This document shows, in pieces, positions 44,079 to 54,900 of a stretch of DNA of 64,000 nt. The stretch spans positions 1 through 64,000 of the forward strand of contig JABANP010000175.1 in assembly GCA_013115135.1 (NCBI GenBank). Direction: 5' to 3'. The notes below the pieces were generated by a model. That model made no database searches. It worked only from the letters and a program-made list of their open reading frames with translations, and was not told the origin of the DNA. Position 1 is the stretch's first letter, and the number at the start of each line of letters is the position of its first letter. Both the position numbers and the translations under genes were made by a program. This DNA comes from Perkinsus olseni. Its lineage: Eukaryota > Perkinsozoa > Perkinsida > Perkinsidae.

Positions 44079-47000
44079 TTAAGCAAATCTGCTAACGCTA
44101 CTCGCTTCGCTCCGCCGAGCCCTGTAGGAGCTGCCTTCCCCTCCAGGGTCACTAAGCAGGAGGCTATGACCATACCCAGCAGCACAGGCCCCCATCCTAA
44201 CCGCACCGATAGATCCGACAACGGATGGTACGTACTCGCAAGACTGCCGAGATCTTCTCGGAGGAGGGGCCTTGGCTATCCAGGACCCACTGGACTTGGC
44301 AGGAGGGTTCAACAGCCCCAGCTGGCCATAGCAGTCGGAACCCCATGCATACACCTGACCCTGCGCGTCGATCGCCAGGACGTGAGCAAAGCCACAAGAT
44401 ACGTTCTTGAACCGTTTGCCAGGAGGAACATTAGAAACCTTGCGAGGCCTGGTGAGCTCCATCGGGTCCCCTGGGGGAAGTGCTAGCTGGCCACTCTCGT
44501 TGCTACCCCAGGTCCATACATCGCCCAGAGTCGTCAGGCAGGTCGTGAAGGCCCCACCGCAGGAGACAGCCGTGACCACGCCGTCCCTATCAGAACCGAC
44601 CTCCACGACTTTAGGCGTGGGACTGCGACAGCTGTTGCCACCCTGACCAGGGGGGAAGGTATCAGCCGAAAACCCCAGGCCTAGCTGCCCGAACTCCCCC
44701 CAACCCCAACAGTACAGCTGCCCAGCCGCCGTCACCGCAGCCGAGTGAGCCTCCCCGCAGGAGACCGAAGCGAAGGAAATGGAAGATGTCTCGCCAGAGA
44801 GCATAGTAGGGGTGGTGACGATGGTCTCATTCTTGACGTCATAGCAGGCCTCAACGCCGTCGATGCCGAGCTGGCCACCCTCCCCTCTGCCCCAGGCCCA
44901 AAGACGTCCTCGCGTGTCGATAGCAATAGCGTGGTAAGACCCACAACTCACCGCTGCCGCCCTACTGGCCCCATCGCCCAGACTGATCTCGAGCACTCCA
45001 GCGCCAGCGGCACCAACCCTGGTAGAGGTAGGCGACGAGGTCAGATCTCCCAGCTGCCAAAGCCGGCCGTCTTCCGACAGCGCCACAACAGCAGAGGCAG
45101 CGCAGGACACTGTCTCGACTACCACACCTTGCGGAAATCGTGGGATGCTGACCTCAGGGAAAGAAGACCCCCATACGTACAGCCGCCCCTCATCACAGAC
45201 TGCCGCGGATATGCTGTCACCAGCAGACACATCGACTAGCCTGCGCTCCTTCAGGCACATCAGCCTCACCGGCCGAGCTGTCCAGTTCACCGCGCTACTC
45301 GCCTCAGTGATCGATCGGACCCCCAGCTGGTCCCTATCGTTACTACCAAACCCGAAGCATGTCCCTCTGGTGACCTCCTGGGTATCCGAAACCACCGGTG
45401 CCGCTGGGACCTGCTTGTACTCCCTCACAATCTGTCCGACCCCCTGAGGGCTCCGCTGGAAGGCCGCCACCGGGTAGGGCCGGGACAAGTCCATAGCCCA
45501 TGGAAGCCTTCTTATATCAGCATCAGCCATACTGGACGCTAGCACCTCGTCCACCTCCTCATCCCGCAGCGGCCCCCCTGTGAGGTCCCTAGCGGTCTCC
45601 GCTCTGTCAAGGAAGGGTCCACTCTCCACCCTAGGGGGCTCGAAATTCATCCCGTCCCTCGCCGCCTCCCCGCACGCCCGAAATATATCACCGTATTTCT
45701 CGACCTTCAGGACCTCCCCTTTAGCATAAGCGTGCTTGCCCAGTCGCCAGGCCAGCCAAGCCACGATCCTTTCCCCCTGCCCCAACCGGGCCCTCGGGTC
45801 CCCATACCCTCCCCTGCTCACCAGCATCGCCAAGGCTTGCAAAAACAATACCGAAGACAGCTCGGGCGAGTTGCTGCTGCCTGCTGCCACGCCTTTGGCG
45901 CACCACAGACCAGCTAATAGTTCCGGATCCGAGGGCCTAACCGCCAAAACCGACCTCGACAGGTTCGGGAAACATGGCAGCACTCCTGCCGAACCGGACC
46001 TCCTCGCCGCAGACCACGCCCCTTGGAGGACCAGCCGCATCCTGTAGTAGGCAAGGCGGCTGTTGGGGAGGTTCAAGGGCGACGGCAGGCAGCAGGCCAA
46101 CAGCAGTTCCTTCAGAGGCAACCCCGACACCTGCTCCTCCAGCCAGTGGACGCCGAGGGACTCATGGACCTTCACCGCCGCCCTAGAGCTCTCCCCTCGC
46201 CCCTTGGACGAACGGGGCTTCACCGTGTAGACCCTAGAGGGCCTCAGCATTGCCTGCAGCTCTATCATATGCCCCGAGCCTGGCTCCAGCACAGCACCCT
46301 CGACCGCCTGGGAGATGCCCGGTCGCCTCCCTCTGCGCCGAAACAACGTCTTCTCTACCGTACTCTCAGGTAGGACCACCCGCAGCTCCCATGCCATGGC
46401 ACGCAGGAGCTCCGGCGGATCCAGTAGGGCCAAGCCCAGGACCAAGGCCGCCGGGGGCGCCTCCCTCCCCACTGCTGATAACAAAACCGCCAGAGTGACA
46501 TAGAAGGACGAGGCAATGGCCGCGGGGTCGTCGCTAGGCGAGAACTTGCCGTCCCAGGCCGTATTAAAAAGCACGCAGAAGAGAGCCTCGCTGTAAGACA
46601 CCCTCCCCTCAGCCCGGGAGCCGCCACCAGGCAGGGCGTTGCAGTACCGCCGAGCCGTGTACTTGCACGCGCGCGCCACCATGAACACACACCAAGGCAC
46701 CAGCCTGTTGTGCATAAATTTGACCTCCAACGCCCTCCTCTCCCCTCGACACGCCCTCAGCTCCTCGGCCACTATAAATGGCACCGCAGCGAATGTGAGA
46801 TCTAGGTCCTTCAAAGCGGCCTTGCAGACTTCCATCACCGACCCCCCGCGGGCTGCCTCTCTCCGCAACGCCTGGCGGGCCCTCAAACAGACCGCCCTGT
46901 CCGGGCAAGCTGCATCGGGGAAGGACACCCGCAGCGCATAGGGAAATCCGCGAATGTTGAAGTCAACCTCGGATTCTTCCCGCGCTATCGCCTCCACCCT

Positions 47001-47909
47001 CGTCACCCCCAAACTGATCTGCTCCTCCTCCGCAAGGTCCACCCATCCCCACTCGACCTCCTGTCCGCCACTAAAAACACAGGCCTCGTGACACGTATCA
47101 GCATTCCGGAACACCAACACCTGCCCCCTTCGCCTACCACCATCCCGATGCACCCTCAAAGCCTTCACCTCCTCCTCCCTCCCCACCAGCGCGCTGCTCC
47201 ACACAACGACGCCCGGCTCCGTCTCCACCAGACAGACGAACCGGTCCTCAGCCCGCTTCACCTCAGCCTTAGCTCTCCTATGCTCCTCACTATCAGCTGG
47301 AACCCTCCTACAGTACACGCCTGCTGCCACCGCCGCCCCAGCGCTTCTGAACTCCTCAGTCGTGGTAATAATCGCTATTGTGTTCATAAATGCCTCGTCC
47401 AAACAGGACAGCTTCTTCATCAACCTCACAGCGTCATCGACTTTGTTAGACTCCCGAAACAGCAGCTCGAAGGGGAAGTAGTGGGTGTCGTTGGCTAGCT
47501 CCGTCACGAACAGTCCGGCAGCCGCAGCCTCCACGTCCTCCCCCTTCAAAGCCTCCACTTCCCCCACCAACTTCAACACCTTCGAGCTCACACTGCGCCA
47601 CATCCCATTCCAGTCGATCGGGTCCGAGTCGTCAAGGTTTTGCTCTCCGCCCCTCGCCAGGGCCTCTACGACCCTCCACGCTCTGCCATCAGCATCCCCG
47701 ACCCGCCTTTGGTAGAAGGTCCCTACCAAATCTTCCATCTCTTCTTCCCCGCCACTCGAGCTCGCCGGCGGTATACTAGTACCAATCGCATTATCACAGC
47801 CGTCCGTCGCTGCCACCGCTGGGCCCTTGGACTCGATCCGAGCAGGACCCTCCGCAGGTGGCGGTGCTGTTGCGGAGGAACTCCTACAGAAGGAGGCACC
47901 ACACCCCAT
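44079..47909 (-). CDS. Large RCC1-repeat protein with N-myristoylation signal (1276 aa)
   Basis: Uninterrupted frame of 1277 codons, unusual beside intron-rich neighbours. ATG at 47909 is chosen because it creates MGCGASFC, a strong N-myristoylation plus palmitoylation start; the 29 codons upstream in frame would bury it. Residues about 848-1260 carry RCC1-type blades: CFGFGSNDRDQLG, GRLYVWGSSF, GRLWAWGRGEGGQLG, GQLYCWGWGEFGQLGLG, GDVWTWGSNESGQLALP, GQVYAWGSDCYGQLGLL, each preceded by a VSCG/AHSAA-type strand. This predicts a seven-bladed propeller. The 850-residue N-terminal part is unrecognised. I infer a membrane-tethered scaffold or exchange-factor-like protein. No HECT or FYVE domain is present. 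Confidence 0.85.
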   Translation of the reverse strand: MGCGASFCRSSSATAPPPAEGPARIESKGPAVAATDGCDNAIGTSIPPASSSGGEEEMEDLVGTFYQRRVGDADGRAWRVVEALARGGEQNLDDSDPIDWNGMWRSVSSKVLKLVGEVEALKGEDVEAAAAGLFVTELANDTHYFPFELLFRESNKVDDAVRLMKKLSCLDEAFMNTIAIITTTEEFRSAGAAVAAGVYCRRVPADSEEHRRAKAEVKRAEDRFVCLVETEPGVVVWSSALVGREEEVKALRVHRDGGRRRGQVLVFRNADTCHEACVFSGGQEVEWGWVDLAEEEQISLGVTRVEAIAREESEVDFNIRGFPYALRVSFPDAACPDRAVCLRARQALRREAARGGSVMEVCKAALKDLDLTFAAVPFIVAEELRACRGERRALEVKFMHNRLVPWCVFMVARACKYTARRYCNALPGGGSRAEGRVSYSEALFCVLFNTAWDGKFSPSDDPAAIASSFYVTLAVLLSAVGREAPPAALVLGLALLDPPELLRAMAWELRVVLPESTVEKTLFRRRGRRPGISQAVEGAVLEPGSGHMIELQAMLRPSRVYTVKPRSSKGRGESSRAAVKVHESLGVHWLEEQVSGLPLKELLLACCLPSPLNLPNSRLAYYRMRLVLQGAWSAARRSGSAGVLPCFPNLSRSVLAVRPSDPELLAGLWCAKGVAAGSSNSPELSSVLFLQALAMLVSRGGYGDPRARLGQGERIVAWLAWRLGKHAYAKGEVLKVEKYGDIFRACGEAARDGMNFEPPRVESGPFLDRAETARDLTGGPLRDEEVDEVLASSMADADIRRLPWAMDLSRPYPVAAFQRSPQGVGQIVREYKQVPAAPVVSDTQEVTRGTCFGFGSNDRDQLGVRSITEASSAVNWTARPVRLMCLKERRLVDVSAGDSISAAVCDEGRLYVWGSSFPEVSIPRFPQGVVVETVSCAASAVVALSEDGRLWQLGDLTSSPTSTRVGAAGAGVLEISLGDGASRAAAVSCGSYHAIAIDTRGRLWAWGRGEGGQLGIDGVEACYDVKNETIVTTPTMLSGETSSISFASVSCGEAHSAAVTAAGQLYCWGWGEFGQLGLGFSADTFPPGQGGNSCRSPTPKVVEVGSDRDGVVTAVSCGGAFTTCLTTLGDVWTWGSNESGQLALPPGDPMELTRPRKVSNVPPGKRFKNVSCGFAHVLAIDAQGQVYAWGSDCYGQLGLLNPPAKSSGSWIAKAPPPRRSRQSCEYVPSVVGSIGAVRMGACAAGYGHSLLLSDPGGEGSSYRARRSEASSVSRFA

Positions 47910-48093
47910 AATAACGAAATAGAAACAAAGCTGATTTGTAGGACACTCGAAGGTGATGAGGCAGAGACTTAAGAGAGAGGGCGGCATTGATCTCATGGAG
48001 CCTCTCTCCCAAGACGCAACCCTCGCGCGCCACGAAATTCAACAGAGACACAGCAGAGAAACCACACTTGAGGAATTCACACGTTAAATATTA

Positions 48094-51000
48094 TCAGTCG
48101 TCCAACTGCTTCACATAAACCCTCCAGCCGGCAGCCCCATGCCTGGCAGACCTACCAAGAGAACGTTCACTCCCACCCACACGCCTCCCTCTAGTACCAC
48201 TCCTTTCCGAAATCATCCGCGCGTCACTGCCAGAGGGGGCTACCAGAGCCTCCGTCAACAACACCGATGCCGCCGTGGCTGACGCTACTCGTACGACCGA
48301 CTCGACTACCAGCGCTGAGACAGCGAGAATTGAGACTGATAGGCCGATAGGTGCTGAACTAACCTGGATCGAGGATTCCTGCCGATGGGAGATCCTCAAG
48401 GCGCCCCCGAATAGCGTTGTAGCCGATGCCCGGATTGCCGCTGCTCCGCTGCACCTGGGCAGATGAGAGACATCTTGTGGATACACTGAGGGGGTTGTCC
48501 TCTCCCGCTGCCGATTAATATGAGTTGAGAGATAGGAATTCGGGAAAAGTTGGTATCAGCGTATAAAAAAGAACAAAAATCACCATCCGTAAGCGTCTCT
48601 GATTCGTCTAACAGTATCACCTCTCCACACCGCTCCACCACAGCGTCCCCATCAGCTCCGCTATTCTCTGCTATCTGCCACATCACCCTTGGCAAGGCCT
48701 CAACCAGCAGCCGATACCCAGCCGTCCAGGAGGGTGACTCCTCCCGACCCATCACCCCCTTCCCCAATGCCCCAGCAGCAGCCAAGAGAGCGGCCCCTCC
48801 CCCAGGCAACACCCCTCCCTTCATAGCCGCCTTCAGCGCACCAATGCCATCCTCATACCGCAGGCCCTTGTCCCTCACCACCAACTGATACCACAGATCC
48901 TCGTCTACCCCCTCCTACCCGGAAGCCTACCTCAGAGTCACCAGCTATCCTGATAGCTGCCACACCGCCCTTTAGGGAGGCCTGCCGACTCTGCAGCTTC
49001 GATTGTTCGTACCTGGTCATCCGGATCATGAACTACAATGAACCCTTCGGAGACAGCACCTTGAGGTCGACTGCTTGATCTCAGCCCTGAGCTCTGCTGC
49101 CCTAGCATCAACCCTCTCCTGGCTATCCTCAGTCAACTTGATAACAGTACGGGACTTGCCAACACTAACCGATGAGGCCTTGCCTGAGGAGAACTTTCTC
49201 AACCCTCCGATGTCTCTTGAAAAAATTTCTAATTTTTCGCTTCCAGTGAAACCAGTCTTACAGGATTCTCCCGGACGTACTAGCATAAGAGAGAAGCTAA
49301 TCCTTGGCGTCTATACATAGGTCTGGTCCTTGGGTCTGTATAAAATGAGGTATATTATCAACGTTAGGTCCCAGATCTAAAATACCGATAATAGCCACTG
49401 GTGTTAATAAGATAATCTCTCTACTTATGAGAAGCCCACTTATCCGAACTTCAGCTTACACCAGACGTAGACAAAACTGGTCGGAGAACTGCCTTACCAA
49501 AGTCCGTCCCCTCAGCCTCATGCAGTCGCTTCAACCTCCGCTCTCCGACCACCGACGCTCCCGTAGCCGCCGCAAGGTCCTCCTAAACCCCACAGCACTT
49601 CCCCCGGCCAGACCCTCCTCCCTTGCCCCTACCAATCGCCTCGTTCGCTCCACTCCGTACCCCGGTGCCTTCACACAGACCATCCTCGGCACTTGGCCCG
49701 ACATCACTGACAGCAGCACCGTACGGATGACAGCTGGCGAGAACTCATCAGCTAGGATCAACAGCGGCGTCTGAGGGGAATCATCCGCTGTTCGCGCTCC
49801 CACAGGCATCAACTACCTTCGCCTCGGTAGCCGCCTTCAGCGCTGGTATGAGATCTTGGGGCTCCTCTATCCGTCCCTCGACCAACAACAAAGACACTTT
49901 CCCTTCCAAAACACACTGGCCCGGTTTCCAATCGCTCCTATCCGAGGCAGCCGTCGCGAACTGTGATGATTCATAACCTCGGTCGAAGGTGTAGCCATCC
50001 GTGAACCTGAAGGGCCCCACCTCAAGCACCCCCACCAAGTAGCGGAGAGCTGCAGCTGTATGAACAAAGTCTCATAAAGCTTAAGGCAAGCATCGGAGTC
50101 CGATGATCGGGCTATAATGAACAAGGACAAGACAACAACAGCAGCAAGAAGAAGAACCCCAGCCCAGCACTACTCCACAGTATCCTGCTCACTGCCATCT
50201 CTCGACTCCTCGACCGTGACCTCTCCCTCATACCCAACATGGGCGAAGGCAGTCGCGAGTATCTAGACGACTGGTAAGACCACGACCTTGCAGCCTGCAT
50301 GCCCCTGACTACCCTCGCCATCTCAGCGTCCCCTGTGCTGACCGCTGCGATCTGCGCCAAGGCCTCCTTACCCCGCTTCAACGGATGGGCCATCTCGTGC
50401 AGCAATGACACGCAGTCGTTCGCTGCGACCTCCAAACCTGAGCTCACCAACACGATGGACGGGAACGCACAGTCATCACCCTGCTAGAGGGAGGGTAACC
50501 TAGCCACAGCCAAGCTGATACTAAACTGGAGGAGAAATCTAATAAATTTTCTACGTTAGCAAAACTTTATTTTCATTCTTGATGGACTTTGAACGCGGCT
50601 CGGCCGGACAGGCCCTACACTGCAGCAGTCCATTAAGAAGTCACCAAGCAATTCCCTTGACGCTACACAGTGACGAGATATCGAAGGCAGCGGGAATATC
50701 GAACGCCCCAAATGATACTAAGCTCGGCAGTGCTCCCCCCGAAGCAGAGGCTGCCAGGCGACTGCCGATATTACCTTTCTTGATCTCCACGGCGTTAGAG
50801 GTCGTCGAGTTGGCCATAACTTCCAAGCCCTTATTAATCAGGTACTGCGTAAGCACCGCCGTCGAGGAGGTCCCATCTGCCACTAAAGCTACCGCCCGTA
50901 GCCATCACCCTCCACCCTACCTCCAGTGGACACCTCGCTCTTGGACGCAGCCGACGCCAGAATCTCTGCTCCAATAGCATCTACAGCCACAACAACAACG

Positions 51001-51768
51001 ATTGGAACCTTCCTTCTATCTGAGCTCTGGCGCAAGAATCAGGACGATGTATTGGCGGTGTGGTACGGGTCGACTACAGCTCCGCTTAAAGAGGTTGACC
51101 ACCCTGGCGTCTAAATTTGCGGCTATAGGGTCTATACGACCGATATTGAGAAGAAAAAGGACCGTTTCTTAACGGAGCAGCAGCAGCAGGGCTGGGCCAA
51201 ACTCCGGTCAGTACCTTTGGAGCCCACTTGCATGCTCAATCGCTTGGCCATATCCTTAGCGATAGTCGCACCGTCATTGACTATCTTAACTCGAGTCCGG
51301 TCAGAGACGCCCCCCTCCGTCAGCACTACATTACGACCTTGAGGGCCCAGCGTTACCTAGCACAGACACCGTACCACTAGCCGAGAATCCAAGGTTGACG
51401 CTGGCATGCGGCAGTGAGCTAAGATACCCTCTCCTTCAACCCCTCACTACCTTCACAGCATCAGCTACAAGATTGAGACCGCGCAGGAGGGAGTCTCTTG
51501 CATCAGCCCCGAAGTCCACAATAGCCTCCGAGGCCCCTCGCAGCGCCGTAGGGTTCTACCACGATGGCGATTCTCAAGCAAAATGGCAGCACAGCAGAGG
51601 CCTTACCAATGGTCCCAGGGCCCCGGGGGGGAGAGGGGCCGCAAAGAGTGCCTCAGTACTGAGCTTGAGGACGTCCCATGCTGTCACGCACAGAGCAGCT
51701 ACTACGATCAGGGACAACACTGCCGGAAGCCTCGACCGTCGACTCCGCCGCCGCCGCTCTTGCTGCAT
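48094..51768 (-). CDS. CPN60: Plastid-type chaperonin 60 with bipartite leader
   Basis: A GroEL/Hsp60-family chaperonin. Exon 1 (51607-51768, 54 codons) starts MQQERRRRSRRSR, then a hydrophobic core LPAVLSLIVVAALCVTA (residues 14-30) and a transit-like stretch with FAAP at 42-45. A 51-nt intron leads to exon 2 with EAIVDFGADARDSLLRGLNL, and a 94-nt intron to VTLGPQGRNVVLTEGG. Then DGATIAKDMAKR, DGTSSTAVLTQYLINKGLEV, GRIEEPQDLIPAL, SVMSGQVPRMVCVKAPGYG, KSRTVIKLTEDSQERVDARA, GGVLPGGGAALLAAAGAL and VRVASATAASVLLTEALV. The sequence is divergent and has no GGM tail, unlike typical mitochondrial Hsp60. Leader and tail together suggest a relict plastid chaperonin. Several middle exon borders are unresolved. 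Confidence 0.85.
51607..51768 (-). other. CPN60 exon 1: signal peptide plus transit-like peptide
   Basis: The first ATG in this frame after an upstream TGA (near 51885) is at 51768. The encoded segment is a strongly basic start, a 17-residue hydrophobic core, then LKLSTEALFAAPLPPGALGP. The FAAP resembles the FVAP-type motif known at the start of dinoflagellate plastid transit peptides. Confidence 0.6.
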
Positions 51769-51964: not shown

Positions 51965-54900
51965 CTACCGACCCGCTCCGCCGAACATAGCCCACATGTT
52001 CTTCTCGCAGCGTCTGATGGTGGTGTCCCTGTACCGCCGGAGGGCCTTCACACACCTCTGCATGGTCACTCGATGGCCCGGGTTGTAGACCCAGCAACGC
52101 TCGGTCATGCGCTTCAGCAAGGGGCTCATCTTGGCGTTGATGCAGCCGTTACCGATGTAGCGTCCGGGATGGAGACCGCACATGCCGACAGCGGCCACCA
52201 TCTCACTATGAGAGCACATCCTCCAGGGTATCTTAGGTTGACCATAGCTCATGACGGAATCCTCACCCTGCCTACCTCCCTGTTCACCATCTCCCACACT
52301 ATGCAGGCCCAGGACCATACGTCACTCGGCGTGCTGATGTCGTCGTCTCGCAGACTCTCCGGGCTGGCCCATCCGAAAGTACACATTCGCCTTTGATACC
52401 TGTCCGGCAGCAATGACAACAACAACCGTCCCTGCTGCTTCTCCGTCGTCGCGAGAAGGGACGCAAAGGCGCATAACGAGTAACAATCCCCTCGGCGTCC
52501 TCACCTGGGCACCACTCTGCTCGCCGAGTGGCCGAAGTCGCACAGCTTGGCCGTAGGCGGTTTGCTTCTCAGATCCACCAGCACGTTCGGGCTCTTAACA
52601 TCCCCATGTATCAAATAATGGCGATGCATGTAAGCCAACCCGCACGCGATATCCAGTGCAAAATTGTGTACCGCTTTCGAGTCCAAGTCCACACTGTCCG
52701 GTCCCGAACTGGTGGGGCCATAAATGATAGCAGGCAGTGAGCTCTCAAGCAACTGGGTCGCAAGGAACCTTTTCGAGTAGGTCTCCGTGTTCGGATCTGC
52801 AGCTATTCCCGCCAAAGACACCACATTCTTGTGGCCACACACTGCATGCAGGACATAAGATTCCCTCAGCAGCTCCGTGGCGTTCTCCAGAGTAGTCTCA
52901 GAGCCCACCTGCTCCTTCAAAGCAAGGTACTCAACACTGGAGGTATTGAACGTTCGACTCATGCTGCCCGTCATGGCCGCGGCCGCCGAGCTCATACCGC
53001 TCCTCGGACTCTGCAGCTCGGAAATCGAGATGGGTATCGCCATGGCAGCCGATTTGATCATCGGAGGACTGCTGGGGCAGACCGATGGCAGGCGAGGCCG
53101 CATCGCTTCGTCCTTCTGTGAGGCGAGTCTGTTTCGGCCGCTCAAGTGCCGACTACCGCTCCGAGATCGATGTCGTTTGATCGTGTACTGGGCGTACTGT
53201 ACCCGACCGTAGGCCCCCTCCCCGATGGTGTCGATGATGTTGATTTGCTGCATTGGGAGGTGCTTGTCGGCTAGCACAGGGTTACTCAGAGCATCCGTTA
53301 CTGCTACTGGGGACCTCATATGCCGGTCTATGCTGCATGCCTGAACAACAAGGAGGAGAGTGAGTACCACACTTCGCCCAATTCATCGCGACGATGTCCC
53401 CTTCAAACGCCATCGACCAACACATCGCCCGTAAACTCGCAGCCCCCTGCGTAGTACCTTAAGCAGCACCTGTTGCATCCTCTCCACGGCGTTCACTTGA
53501 GCTAGCGTCATGTCCAACTCCTCGGCCGCAGTCCCATTGTGGAGCATTCTCTCGAGATCCTCACCATCATACGACTTAGCCGACATCAACAACGCCGATC
53601 GCCTCAGTCCCATCAACTCCAACCAGGCCGCGATCTCGAATCGGTCCATGCAGTGCAACGGTAATATCGCAGAATCGTACAGCTCCGGCAGGTCCGGGCC
53701 TGCTTGCAGCGGCACGCCCGTCACCGGGCTCAACCCGATCACGTGGTAGCGCCATTGCTCAGCTCGTCTAACGTGAGCGGTGTAGACGCACTCCTGCCGT
53801 CTGTTGCCGTTCTGATCCGTCGTCACCCAGACCGAGTTGATCGGCTGCGTGAAGGGGGATATCGACATGCCGATCTTCAGCTCGCCCGTCTCGAACCGTC
53901 CCATCTTCCATACCGCATCTTCGGTAACCTTGAAGCCATAGCCAGTGAACTCATCCTGTTGCCAGTCACCCTCGAAGGTCTCTGCACTGAGCTCGCCAAC
54001 ATGCGCCGCTTCTCCCTGTACCCAATACCGTCCAAAGCCTTCTCTACGGCCTTCGACCAAGGACCCGGTGTACGCTCCTCGCCTCGGGTCATTCTCGTAC
54101 CACACGGAGCCGTAACCGGTAATTTTATCTTGGTCAGGATCGAAATTTTCGCGCAGCCACCGCGGGAACTGCCCCAGAGGGTGCAGAGGTCCCTCGGCCG
54201 GCAGCAGAGTGGAAAACCGGGCCCGAAAGACGGCTGCGGCCCGAGGGGCGTAGGTCGATATCACATAGCGGTTATTTACAAATTTTCCATCAGAAGTAAC
54301 CAGCTCAGCCTGGCGTACTTTGAATCCGGCCGTCATGATTAATAGATGGAGGAAGGCGGCCAACCCGGCCTGGTTCACGCTGGTGACCTCCGCTTCAAAA
54401 ATATAACCCCAAATCCCGGGCCGCCGAGGGCGATAGCCGTGATGGCGCGGCAAGGCTACCGGCCGATCACACCGAGTTCGCGGCCATTCCAAAGGTAAGT
54501 TACGGATGGAGTGGTAGCTGTCGATAAGTTTGAATTTTTTCAAGGATATCAGATCTTCTATACCTGATAGCGACAGCTTCACTGCACGAACAACGCGACG
54601 AAGCTAGTACATAGTAGGCCGTTCTCTGGGGCCTCGTCGGTCGGCCCCTCCGTGGGGCTTTTACCGATGTCATATGAGTGGGCATTCTGCATGACGCACC
54701 TGAGAGTTATCATAGGGATCAGCGAGATGCAGTATGATACTACTCGAGATCATGGCGAAGGGAATCAAAGGTCGGAGCCTGCTGATCGTCGAAGGCGCTG
54801 GTTGCTGGTGCCAGTCCGAAATACCCGACAAAACCGATACCTCCACGACCGCCAGAGTAATCATAGAAACTCTGAGAGTATCCATAGGTTGATCATGGAA

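What the first reader, a model, noticed from the sequence alone, without database searches (positions are those of the whole stretch)
48094..51768. Divergent GroEL-type chaperonin with a signal-plus-transit leader: evidence for a cryptic plastid
The exon-1 product has a basic start, a 17-residue hydrophobic core and a downstream FAAP motif before the conserved chaperonin begins. That is the layout of a bipartite plastid leader in secondary-plastid lineages, where FVAP-type motifs are known. The C-terminus lacks the GGM tail of mitochondrial Hsp60. If the organism is a perkinsozoan, which is non-photosynthetic, this is a strong candidate for a protein-folding machine of a relict plastid.
Basis: partly seen in the sequence, partly recalled or inferred. 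Interest (0 to 1): 0.8.

Follow-up and report, generated by a model that had tools for sequence, protein, structure and literature searches.

The report
Divergent plastid chaperonin of a Perkinsus
A shellfish parasite that lost photosynthesis carries an apparently intact, very fast-evolving protein-folding machine gene whose start looks like the address label of its leftover chloroplast, which fits an already suspected organelle and adds a likely folding part to it.

Summary
The gene is real: minus strand, window 51768-48111, 16 exons, a 638-residue GroEL-type chaperonin with ATP-site residues kept and a Perkinsus olseni ortholog 95.7% identical over 608 residues. The genome also carries a conventional mitochondrial Hsp60, so this is a second, divergent paralog (32% identical to it). 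The leader holds: basic start, hydrophobic core, FAAP. The same layout lies upstream of five plastid-pathway genes in this genome (DXR, IspG, IspH, ferredoxin, DXS), in none of the Hsp60, Cpn10 and other chaperonin loci scanned, and once in 50 kb of arbitrary sequence. That is the best evidence for plastid targeting; the criterion was partly post hoc. One detail fails: spliced as in P. olseni, the protein ends LPGMGLPAGGFM, a short G/M-rich tail. Phylogeny cannot place it (branch about 8 changes per column); mitochondrial grouping is weakly disfavoured under one model, a red-plastid origin allowed but not shown. A relict Perkinsus plastid has been in print since 2007-08. My searches of open-licence papers listed no report of a plastid chaperonin for it. 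Verdict: likely stromal Cpn60 of the relict plastid, a new member of a known kind.

The parts
51607..51768 (-). exon 1: leader (residues 1-54)
   Evidence: open frame, GT donor; its 3' part (WDVLK..STEALFAAPLPPGAL) is conserved in P. olseni P0001
51682..51729 (-). hydrophobic core LPAVLSLIVVAALCVT (residues 14-29), preceded by RRRRSRRSR
   Evidence: hydropathy 2.58
51634..51645 (-). FAAP motif (residues 42-45)
   Evidence: comparable F motifs in DXR, IspG, IspH, Fd and DXS segments
51451..51555 (-). exon 2
51215..51356 (-). exon 3 (VTLGPQGRN, IVNDG ATP-site motifs)
50921..50980 (-). exon 4
50775..50876 (-). exon 5 (GDGTSST, counterpart of GroEL GDGTTT, spans the exon 4/5 junction)
   Evidence: acceptor set by the P. 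olseni ortholog
50313..50437 (-). exon 6
50174..50262 (-). exon 7
   Evidence: donor set by the P. olseni ortholog
49817..50006 (-). exon 8 (apical domain)
   Evidence: acceptor set by the P. olseni ortholog
49633..49770 (-). exon 9 (apical domain, VKAPGYG)
49498..49582 (-). exon 10
49060..49183 (-). exon 11
   Evidence: acceptor set by the P. olseni ortholog
48931..49012 (-). exon 12
48621..48884 (-). exon 13 (YEDGIGALKAAMKGGVLPGGG: D398, G414-G416)
   Evidence: one match in the assembly
48364..48454 (-). exon 14 (GYNA, GILDP)
48198..48314 (-). exon 15
   Evidence: acceptor set by the P. olseni ortholog
48111..48151 (-). exon 16: C-terminal tail LPGMGLPAGGFM and stop
   Evidence: 46-nt GT-AG intron before it; same end in P. 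olseni P0001

Best explanation
The gene encodes the GroEL-type chaperonin (Cpn60) of the Perkinsus relict plastid. Proposed path: the hydrophobic core in the leader takes the precursor into the ER; a transit-peptide-like stretch beginning around FAAP carries it on through the plastid membranes; the leader is removed; the mature chain of about 570-580 residues forms a ring that uses ATP to fold proteins imported into a plastid that makes isoprenoid precursors and probably Fe-S clusters. Shown here: the open spliced gene, the conserved ATP-site residues, the leader layout shared with plastid-pathway loci of the same genome, and a separate mitochondrial Hsp60. Inferred: expression, localisation, cleavage, ring assembly, clients and co-chaperonin.
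For: GroEL identity: NCBIfam chaperonin GroEL NF009487 E 1.1e-106, 357.2 bits (cut-off 352), first model; PDB GroELs E down to 2.2e-72. Positions T30, L31, G32, P33, D52, D87, G88, T89, S151, D398 and G414-G416 kept. Frame maintained in a P. olseni ortholog, 95.7% over 608 aa. A separate Hsp60 on C774/C653; the C774 copy groups with mitochondrial Hsp60s 100/100 and is 32.2% identical to this protein. Leader: DXR, IspG, IspH, Fd and DXS loci each hold one open segment with basic start, hydrophobic core and [AL]Fx2-5[PG], on the gene strand and upstream of the enzyme exons (6 of 149 segments over 11 plastid-pathway loci, IspH on two contigs), against 0 of 54 (Hsp60 x2, Cpn10 x2, L136), 0 of 42 (four other PF00118 loci, taken for CCT) and 1 of 165 (five arbitrary 10-kb stretches). 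Precedent: apicoplast CPN60 is essential and its loss is rescued by IPP (passages of PMC12282863).
Against: The motif was worded after seeing the candidate, DXR, IspG, IspH and Fd; only DXS was found blind. IspF, IspD and three SufB/D-type loci do not pass it. The CCT-type control loci may lack their first exons. Leader-to-enzyme splicing is not shown for any gene. FAAP lies 12 residues past the core, further than in DXR or IspG. Phylogeny does not place the protein with plastid Cpn60; diagnostic residues tie 10 to 10 between red-plastid and mitochondrial types; its apical half scores best with glomalin and 7v98/7v9r, which I counted as mitochondrial-type, though human Hsp60 scores below E. 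coli GroEL there. No plastid-type co-chaperonin was found, only one Cpn10 pair of loci. No localisation or transcript data.
Confidence: 0.74

Rival explanations
1. A second mitochondrial Hsp60: a diverged duplicate of the mitochondrial chaperonin whose hydrophobic N-terminus is an unusual presequence or inner-membrane sorting signal.
For: Diagnostic residues tie 10 to 10; the apical half scores highest with glomalin and 7v98/7v9r (137-141 bits against 129 for E. coli GroEL), of which glomalin and 7v98 fall with mitochondrial Hsp60 in the tree; under LG+G4 a mitochondrial position is 5.9 log units below the best and not rejected.
Against: The leader has hydropathy 2.58 and the layout of plastid-gene segments, whereas the genome's own Hsp60 leader scores -0.06; under LG+C20 holding it with mitochondrial Hsp60 costs 3.46 log units, p-AU 0.038; human Hsp60 scores 122 bits in the apical half, below E. 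coli GroEL.
Confidence: 0.1
2. A chaperonin of the ER, another endomembrane compartment or the space between plastid membranes: the hydrophobic stretch is a plain signal peptide or membrane anchor and FAAP is incidental.
For: Any ER signal would give the same core; 5 of 191 window segments and 5 of 165 arbitrary ones have basic start plus core; FAAP is 12 residues past the core.
Against: Group I chaperonins are, from general knowledge, not known in the ER; the F motif recurs in plastid-pathway loci; PMC5756292 (passages) reports that periplastid-space leaders lack the phenylalanine, shown for diatoms.
Confidence: 0.1
3. Gene-model artefact: exon 1 is not part of the transcript, or the gene is a decaying copy.
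For: No transcript was available; both P. olseni models are fused with neighbouring genes and neither starts at this ATG; P0001 skips most of the hydrophobic core by what in the window would be an implausibly short intron of about 25 nt (inference).
Against: 16 open exons with 15 GT-AG introns, 9 of them 44-51 nt; ATP-site residues kept; ortholog identity 95.7%, similar to the neighbouring RCC1-repeat protein, 94.7% over 1311 aa; P0001 keeps WDVLKPSTEALFAAPLPPGAL joined to NPTALRG as predicted here.
Confidence: 0.06

Closest known systems
Apicoplast Cpn60 of Plasmodium (PDB 7k3z; PMC12282863 passages)
   Same: Nuclear-encoded GroEL-type chaperonin of a non-photosynthetic myzozoan plastid that supplies isoprenoid precursors; also divergent. 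The first-model protein scored 7k3z (210.5 bits) about as high as E. coli GroEL (213.3).
   Different: Apicoplasts have a genome; none is known for the Perkinsus plastid (recall). Direct grouping untested: the 7k3z letters were not obtained.
Dinoflagellate plastid-type Cpn60 (P0245, named Symbiodinium groL1; P0235, P0243, P0249, P0230 unnamed, grouped with it)
   Same: Group I chaperonin with a long N-terminal extension; plastid location is my inference.
   Different: Better conserved and with cyanobacterial-like GroELs at 100/100; acidic DY-rich tails; P0235 is 32.8% identical to the candidate.
Mitochondrial Hsp60 of the same genome (C774/C653)
   Same: GroEL-type sequence and ATP site.
   Different: Polar, basic leader; GGM repeats at the end; 54.5% identical to bacterial P0004 against 37.0% for the candidate.
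P. olseni FOL46_006948 (P0001) and FOZ61_007662 (P0121)
   Same: Ortholog, 95.7% and 95.1% identical over the matched parts; P0001 shows the same upstream kinase, P0121 the same downstream RCC1-repeat gene.
   Different: Named hypothetical and fused with a neighbouring gene by annotation.

Membership tests
Group I chaperonin (GroEL/Cpn60/Hsp60) | Full-length sequence homology to GroEL | tested here: met
   NF009487 residues 66-648 at 357.2 bits (cut-off 352); TIGR02348 335 bits, below its equivalog cut-off of 582.1; PF00118 127.6 bits, cut-off 34.3. All on the first, unrefined model.
Group I chaperonin (GroEL/Cpn60/Hsp60) | ATP/Mg2+ and catalytic residues | tested here: met
   D52, D87 and D398 and the G-rich loops kept; K51 is N, as in P0235; T90 and T91 are S; 150 is V. 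Residue roles are recalled.
Group I chaperonin (GroEL/Cpn60/Hsp60) | C-terminal GGM-type tail | tested here: inconclusive
   LPGMGLPAGGFM if the last 46-nt intron is spliced
Group I chaperonin (GroEL/Cpn60/Hsp60) | Seven-membered rings, co-chaperonin binding | not testable with these tools
   Positions 199, 204, 234, 237, 259, 263 and 264 stay aromatic or aliphatic, 203 is Q
Plastid Cpn60 of secondary red plastids | Leader of the layout found in other plastid-pathway genes of the organism | tested here: met
   Same layout as DXR, IspG, IspH, Fd and DXS segments, not IspF, IspD or Suf; criterion partly post hoc; cleavage and import untested, SignalP not available
Plastid Cpn60 of secondary red plastids | Groups with cyanobacterial/plastid Cpn60 in a tree | tested here: inconclusive
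   Held there: 3.08 log units better than the free tree, p-AU 0.73; under LG+G4 the red-plastid position is 3.8 below the best
Plastid Cpn60 of secondary red plastids | Localised in the stroma | not testable with these tools
   none
Plastid Cpn60 of secondary red plastids | Plastid co-chaperonin (Cpn20/Cpn10) in the genome | tested here: inconclusive
   PF00166 finds one Cpn10 locus and an apparent second copy (C81, C806), matched exon by exon; a divergent Cpn20 could be missed
Mitochondrial Hsp60 | Mitochondrial-type presequence | tested here: not met
   Leader hydropathy 2.58 against -0.06 for the own Hsp60 leader; no targeting predictor was available
Mitochondrial Hsp60 | Groups with mitochondrial Hsp60 | tested here: inconclusive
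   p-AU 0.0377 against under LG+C20; not rejected under LG+G4

The most novel reading that the evidence does not exclude
The Perkinsus plastid no longer uses the algal chaperonin: its folding machine is a much-altered second chaperonin, perhaps a retargeted duplicate of mitochondrial Hsp60 or a laterally acquired GroEL, adapted to a plastid that folds only a small set of imported proteins. Mixed plastid-type and mitochondrial-type diagnostic residues (10 to 10) and the unplaceable branch do not exclude this.
Probability: 0.15. Interest if true: 0.7.

Novelty: new member of a known kind. Interest (0 to 1): 0.45.

Why it matters
If right, this is a likely protein-folding component of the Perkinsus relict plastid, beyond the isoprenoid enzymes, ferredoxin system and acetyl-CoA carboxylase mentioned in the passages read; [quoted passage not shown] marinus (PMC5573998 passages). 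A chaperonin could serve as an organelle marker. The leader pattern, seen at five plastid-pathway genes plus this one, is a rule that can be run over a whole proteome to list what the relict plastid contains, which makes the open question of that organelle's content testable. The annotation lesson is concrete: both public P. olseni models found fuse this gene with a neighbour, which hides it.

Tried and rejected
First gene model (15 exons, 688 aa, stop at 48094; one search was an incomplete first run) was replaced after comparison with P. olseni: it missed the GDGTSST motif and kept extra residues at the changed junctions. Searches used this first model.

C31 (best PF00118 hit) was first noted as the mitochondrial Hsp60. 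It is not among the matches of a GroEL query and reads, by eye, as a cytosolic CCT subunit; the mitochondrial Hsp60 is on C774/C653.

Placing the protein by tree: not resolved. Before the tree I dropped 10 of 67 collected rows, near-duplicates or ordinary bacteria, for speed. The tree program flagged the candidate rows for unusual letter make-up. Diagnostic residues: tied. Bit-score affinity to the apicoplast chaperonin: rejected as a test because slow sites alone can raise the ratio. Getting the 7k3z letters from printed alignments failed, it was never among those printed. Intron positions against the own Hsp60 were compared by eye only and were uninformative. Structure prediction was not run: identity to GroEL was already clear.
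Full report
What is there. The minus strand of window 48111-51768 holds a 16-exon gene for a GroEL-type chaperonin. I first read it from six-frame pieces and joined them at GT-AG sites. Two P. olseni proteins (P0001, FOL46_006948; P0121, FOZ61_007662) showed four junctions to be misplaced and one C-terminal intron missed. The corrected model has 15 GT-AG introns, 9 of them 44-51 nt, and 638 residues; it aligns with P0001 over 608 residues at 95.7% with no gap, partly by construction because P0001 guided the choice. An exon-13 DNA search finds one copy in the 61.5-Mb, 968-contig assembly.

What it is. The main ATP-site and catalytic positions I checked are kept, with T90S, T91S, K51N and 150V among the changes. 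Identity to the other nine rows compared (P. olseni apart) is 32-37%, against 43-60% for the genome's own Hsp60 with the non-candidate rows. So this is a probably active but strongly diverged chaperonin.

The organism. The only close relatives in the listed protein hits are P. olseni proteins (120 of 5739 hits listed; all 20). The neighbouring RCC1-repeat protein is 94.7% identical to P. olseni over 1311 residues, and the upstream kinase also matches. The window is from a Perkinsus close to P. olseni; I did not identify the isolate.

Two GroEL-type chaperonins. A bacterial GroEL query finds a well-conserved Hsp60 on C774 and C653, two similar loci that I read as haplotypes, and one exon of the window gene. 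That Hsp60 has a polar, basic leader and ends in GGM repeats; the C774 copy groups with mitochondrial Hsp60 at 100/100. The cell therefore has a mitochondrial chaperonin besides this one. PF00166 finds one Cpn10 locus, also on two contigs (C81, C806).

The leader. Residues 1-13 are basic, 14-29 hydrophobic (mean 2.58), and FAAP lies at 42-45. The same genome carries DXR, IspG, IspH, IspF, DXS, a weak IspD match, a plant-type ferredoxin and SufB/D-type genes. Upstream of the conserved exons of DXR, IspG, IspH and ferredoxin I saw open segments with the same layout. I then fixed a criterion: 16 residues of mean hydropathy at least 2.1 in the first 60, net charge at least +2 before it, and [AL]F followed by 2-5 residues and P or G after it. 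It passes 10 of 717 ATG starts in the window and 16 loci: 1 in the candidate, 2 in IspH (one per contig), 2 in DXR, 1 in IspG, 2 in ferredoxin and, not seen beforehand, 2 in the DXS locus. Counted per open segment: window 1 of 191 (the candidate), plastid-pathway loci 6 of 149 over 11 loci, Hsp60/Cpn10/L136 loci 0 of 54, four other PF00118 loci taken for CCT 0 of 42, five arbitrary 10-kb stretches 1 of 165; 0 of 3939 starts in shuffled windows. By gene, 5 of 8 plastid-pathway genes pass, counting the three Suf loci as one; IspF has a hydrophobic stretch without the motif, IspD and Suf do not pass. Caveats: the motif was framed after seeing four of the five genes; no leader is tied to its enzyme by a transcript; the CCT-type loci may not reach their first exons; the DXS leader lies about 1.2 kb upstream of the first DXS exon I recognised. 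In print, a phenylalanine at the start of the transit peptide is described for most chromist plastids but reported missing in Plasmodium, Digyalum and Voromonas (PMC5756292 and PMC4010437 passages, PMC6733595 section 8), so the motif is a lineage habit, not a requirement.

Origin. In a tree of 57 of 67 collected rows (LG+C20) the candidate pair sits on a branch of about 7.9 changes per column with no supported position. Holding it with all plastid and cyanobacterial rows, or with the red-type subset, gives trees 3.08 log units better than the free search found (p-AU 0.73); with the five dinoflagellate-type rows alone 0.41 better (p 0.55); with mitochondrial Hsp60 3.46 worse (p 0.038). Placing it on each of 107 branches under LG+G4 (535 columns) puts one alpha-proteobacterial branch first, then mixed bacterial branches (1.9-2.6 below), red plastid 3.8 below and mitochondria 5.9 below; only positions among cyanobacterial or cyanobacterial-like rows alone are as much as 10.8 below, counting the best position of each category. 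Diagnostic residues tie 10 to 10 between red-plastid and mitochondrial types: plastid-type ones include N and I in IVNDG-TIAK, A in AASK and D, L and I around LRYEDGI, mitochondrial-type ones lie elsewhere. The apical half scores best with glomalin and 7v98/7v9r, which I counted as mitochondrial-type, but human Hsp60 scores below E. coli GroEL there. The honest reading is that descent is unresolved, and a red-plastid origin is allowed but not shown.

How it most likely works. Shown: open spliced gene, ATP-site residues, leader layout, separate mitochondrial Hsp60. Inferred: expression, co-translational entry into the ER, onward import across the plastid membranes with the F-led transit stretch, leader removal, ring formation, ATP-driven folding of imported isoprenoid, ferredoxin and Fe-S proteins. 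The co-chaperonin is the weakest link.

Against the literature. Passages read: PMC2868825 (relict plastid evidence, MEP pathway, ferredoxin; [quoted passage not shown] marinus), PMC5756292 (bipartite leaders for ferredoxin and isoprenoid genes of Perkinsus), PMC4010437 (non-photosynthetic plastid identified by immunofluorescence in P. marinus), PMC12282863 (apicoplast CPN60 essential, rescued by IPP), PMC3542282 (apicoplast cpn20), PMC7980591, PMC10624901, PMC6642578, PMC9550989, and PMC6733595 (passages and section 8, which uses cpn60 as a signature plastid gene). The review PMC6810647 is not held. Nine Perkinsus/Perkinsozoa paper searches (one search listed 20 of 33) showed no title or abstract start that reports a Perkinsus plastid chaperonin. 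I read only passages of some listed papers, and subscription papers and supplementary tables were out of reach, so it may be in print.

Verdict. Ordinary as a kind (a plastid Cpn60), useful as a find: a likely stromal chaperonin of the Perkinsus plastid, hidden by fused annotation, very divergent, with a leader that recurs at the genome's plastid-pathway genes.

Noticed in passing
G000:C115:12870-13376, C243:7254-7880, C608:23676-23858 (L137, L138, L139): SufB/D-type genes (SUFBD_core) in the assembly, suggesting a plastid Fe-S system in this Perkinsus; the C115 locus has an arginine-rich, hydrophobic segment upstream that does not pass the leader criterion.
   Followed up: partly
L133:518 on (G000:C723): A plastid-type leader segment (MAVTTSSRASAAARLGVVVVCALALSSIIMVSEMLFIQPSP) about 1.2 kb upstream of the first recognised DXS exon, picked up blind by the leader criterion.
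   Followed up: partly
P0001 and P0121 (NCBI FOL46_006948, FOZ61_007662): Public P. olseni gene models fuse this chaperonin with the upstream kinase or the downstream RCC1-repeat gene, which probably hides it from annotation searches.
   Followed up: yes
window 44079-48038 (-) and about 51965-53400 (-): Neighbours: a 1319-codon open frame with RCC1-like repeats downstream and a protein kinase gene upstream; each is next to the chaperonin in one P. olseni model too.
   Followed up: partly
G000:C653/C774, C81/C806, C547/C889: Hsp60, Cpn10 and IspH each match on two contigs, so the assembly seems to keep both haplotypes in places; exon 13 of the window gene matches once.
   Followed up: no
P0235, P0243, P0245, P0249, P0230: Long Cpn60s (P0245 named Symbiodinium groL1) end in acidic DY-rich tails instead of GGM repeats.
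   Followed up: no
L142 (G000:C279:110001-120000): One open segment in arbitrary sequence also passes the leader criterion (MVHGDVFRPPPHRRLLCVCVGSGIQLLLMCGLVLVFATLGFLSPVHRG...); it may be a membrane protein or an unrecognised plastid protein.
   Followed up: no
P0002, P0122: Database proteins of 1086 aa that hold two GroEL units in tandem; further listed hits of about 1050-1100 aa (for example P0168, named Solirubrobacterales) may be alike but were not read.
   Followed up: no
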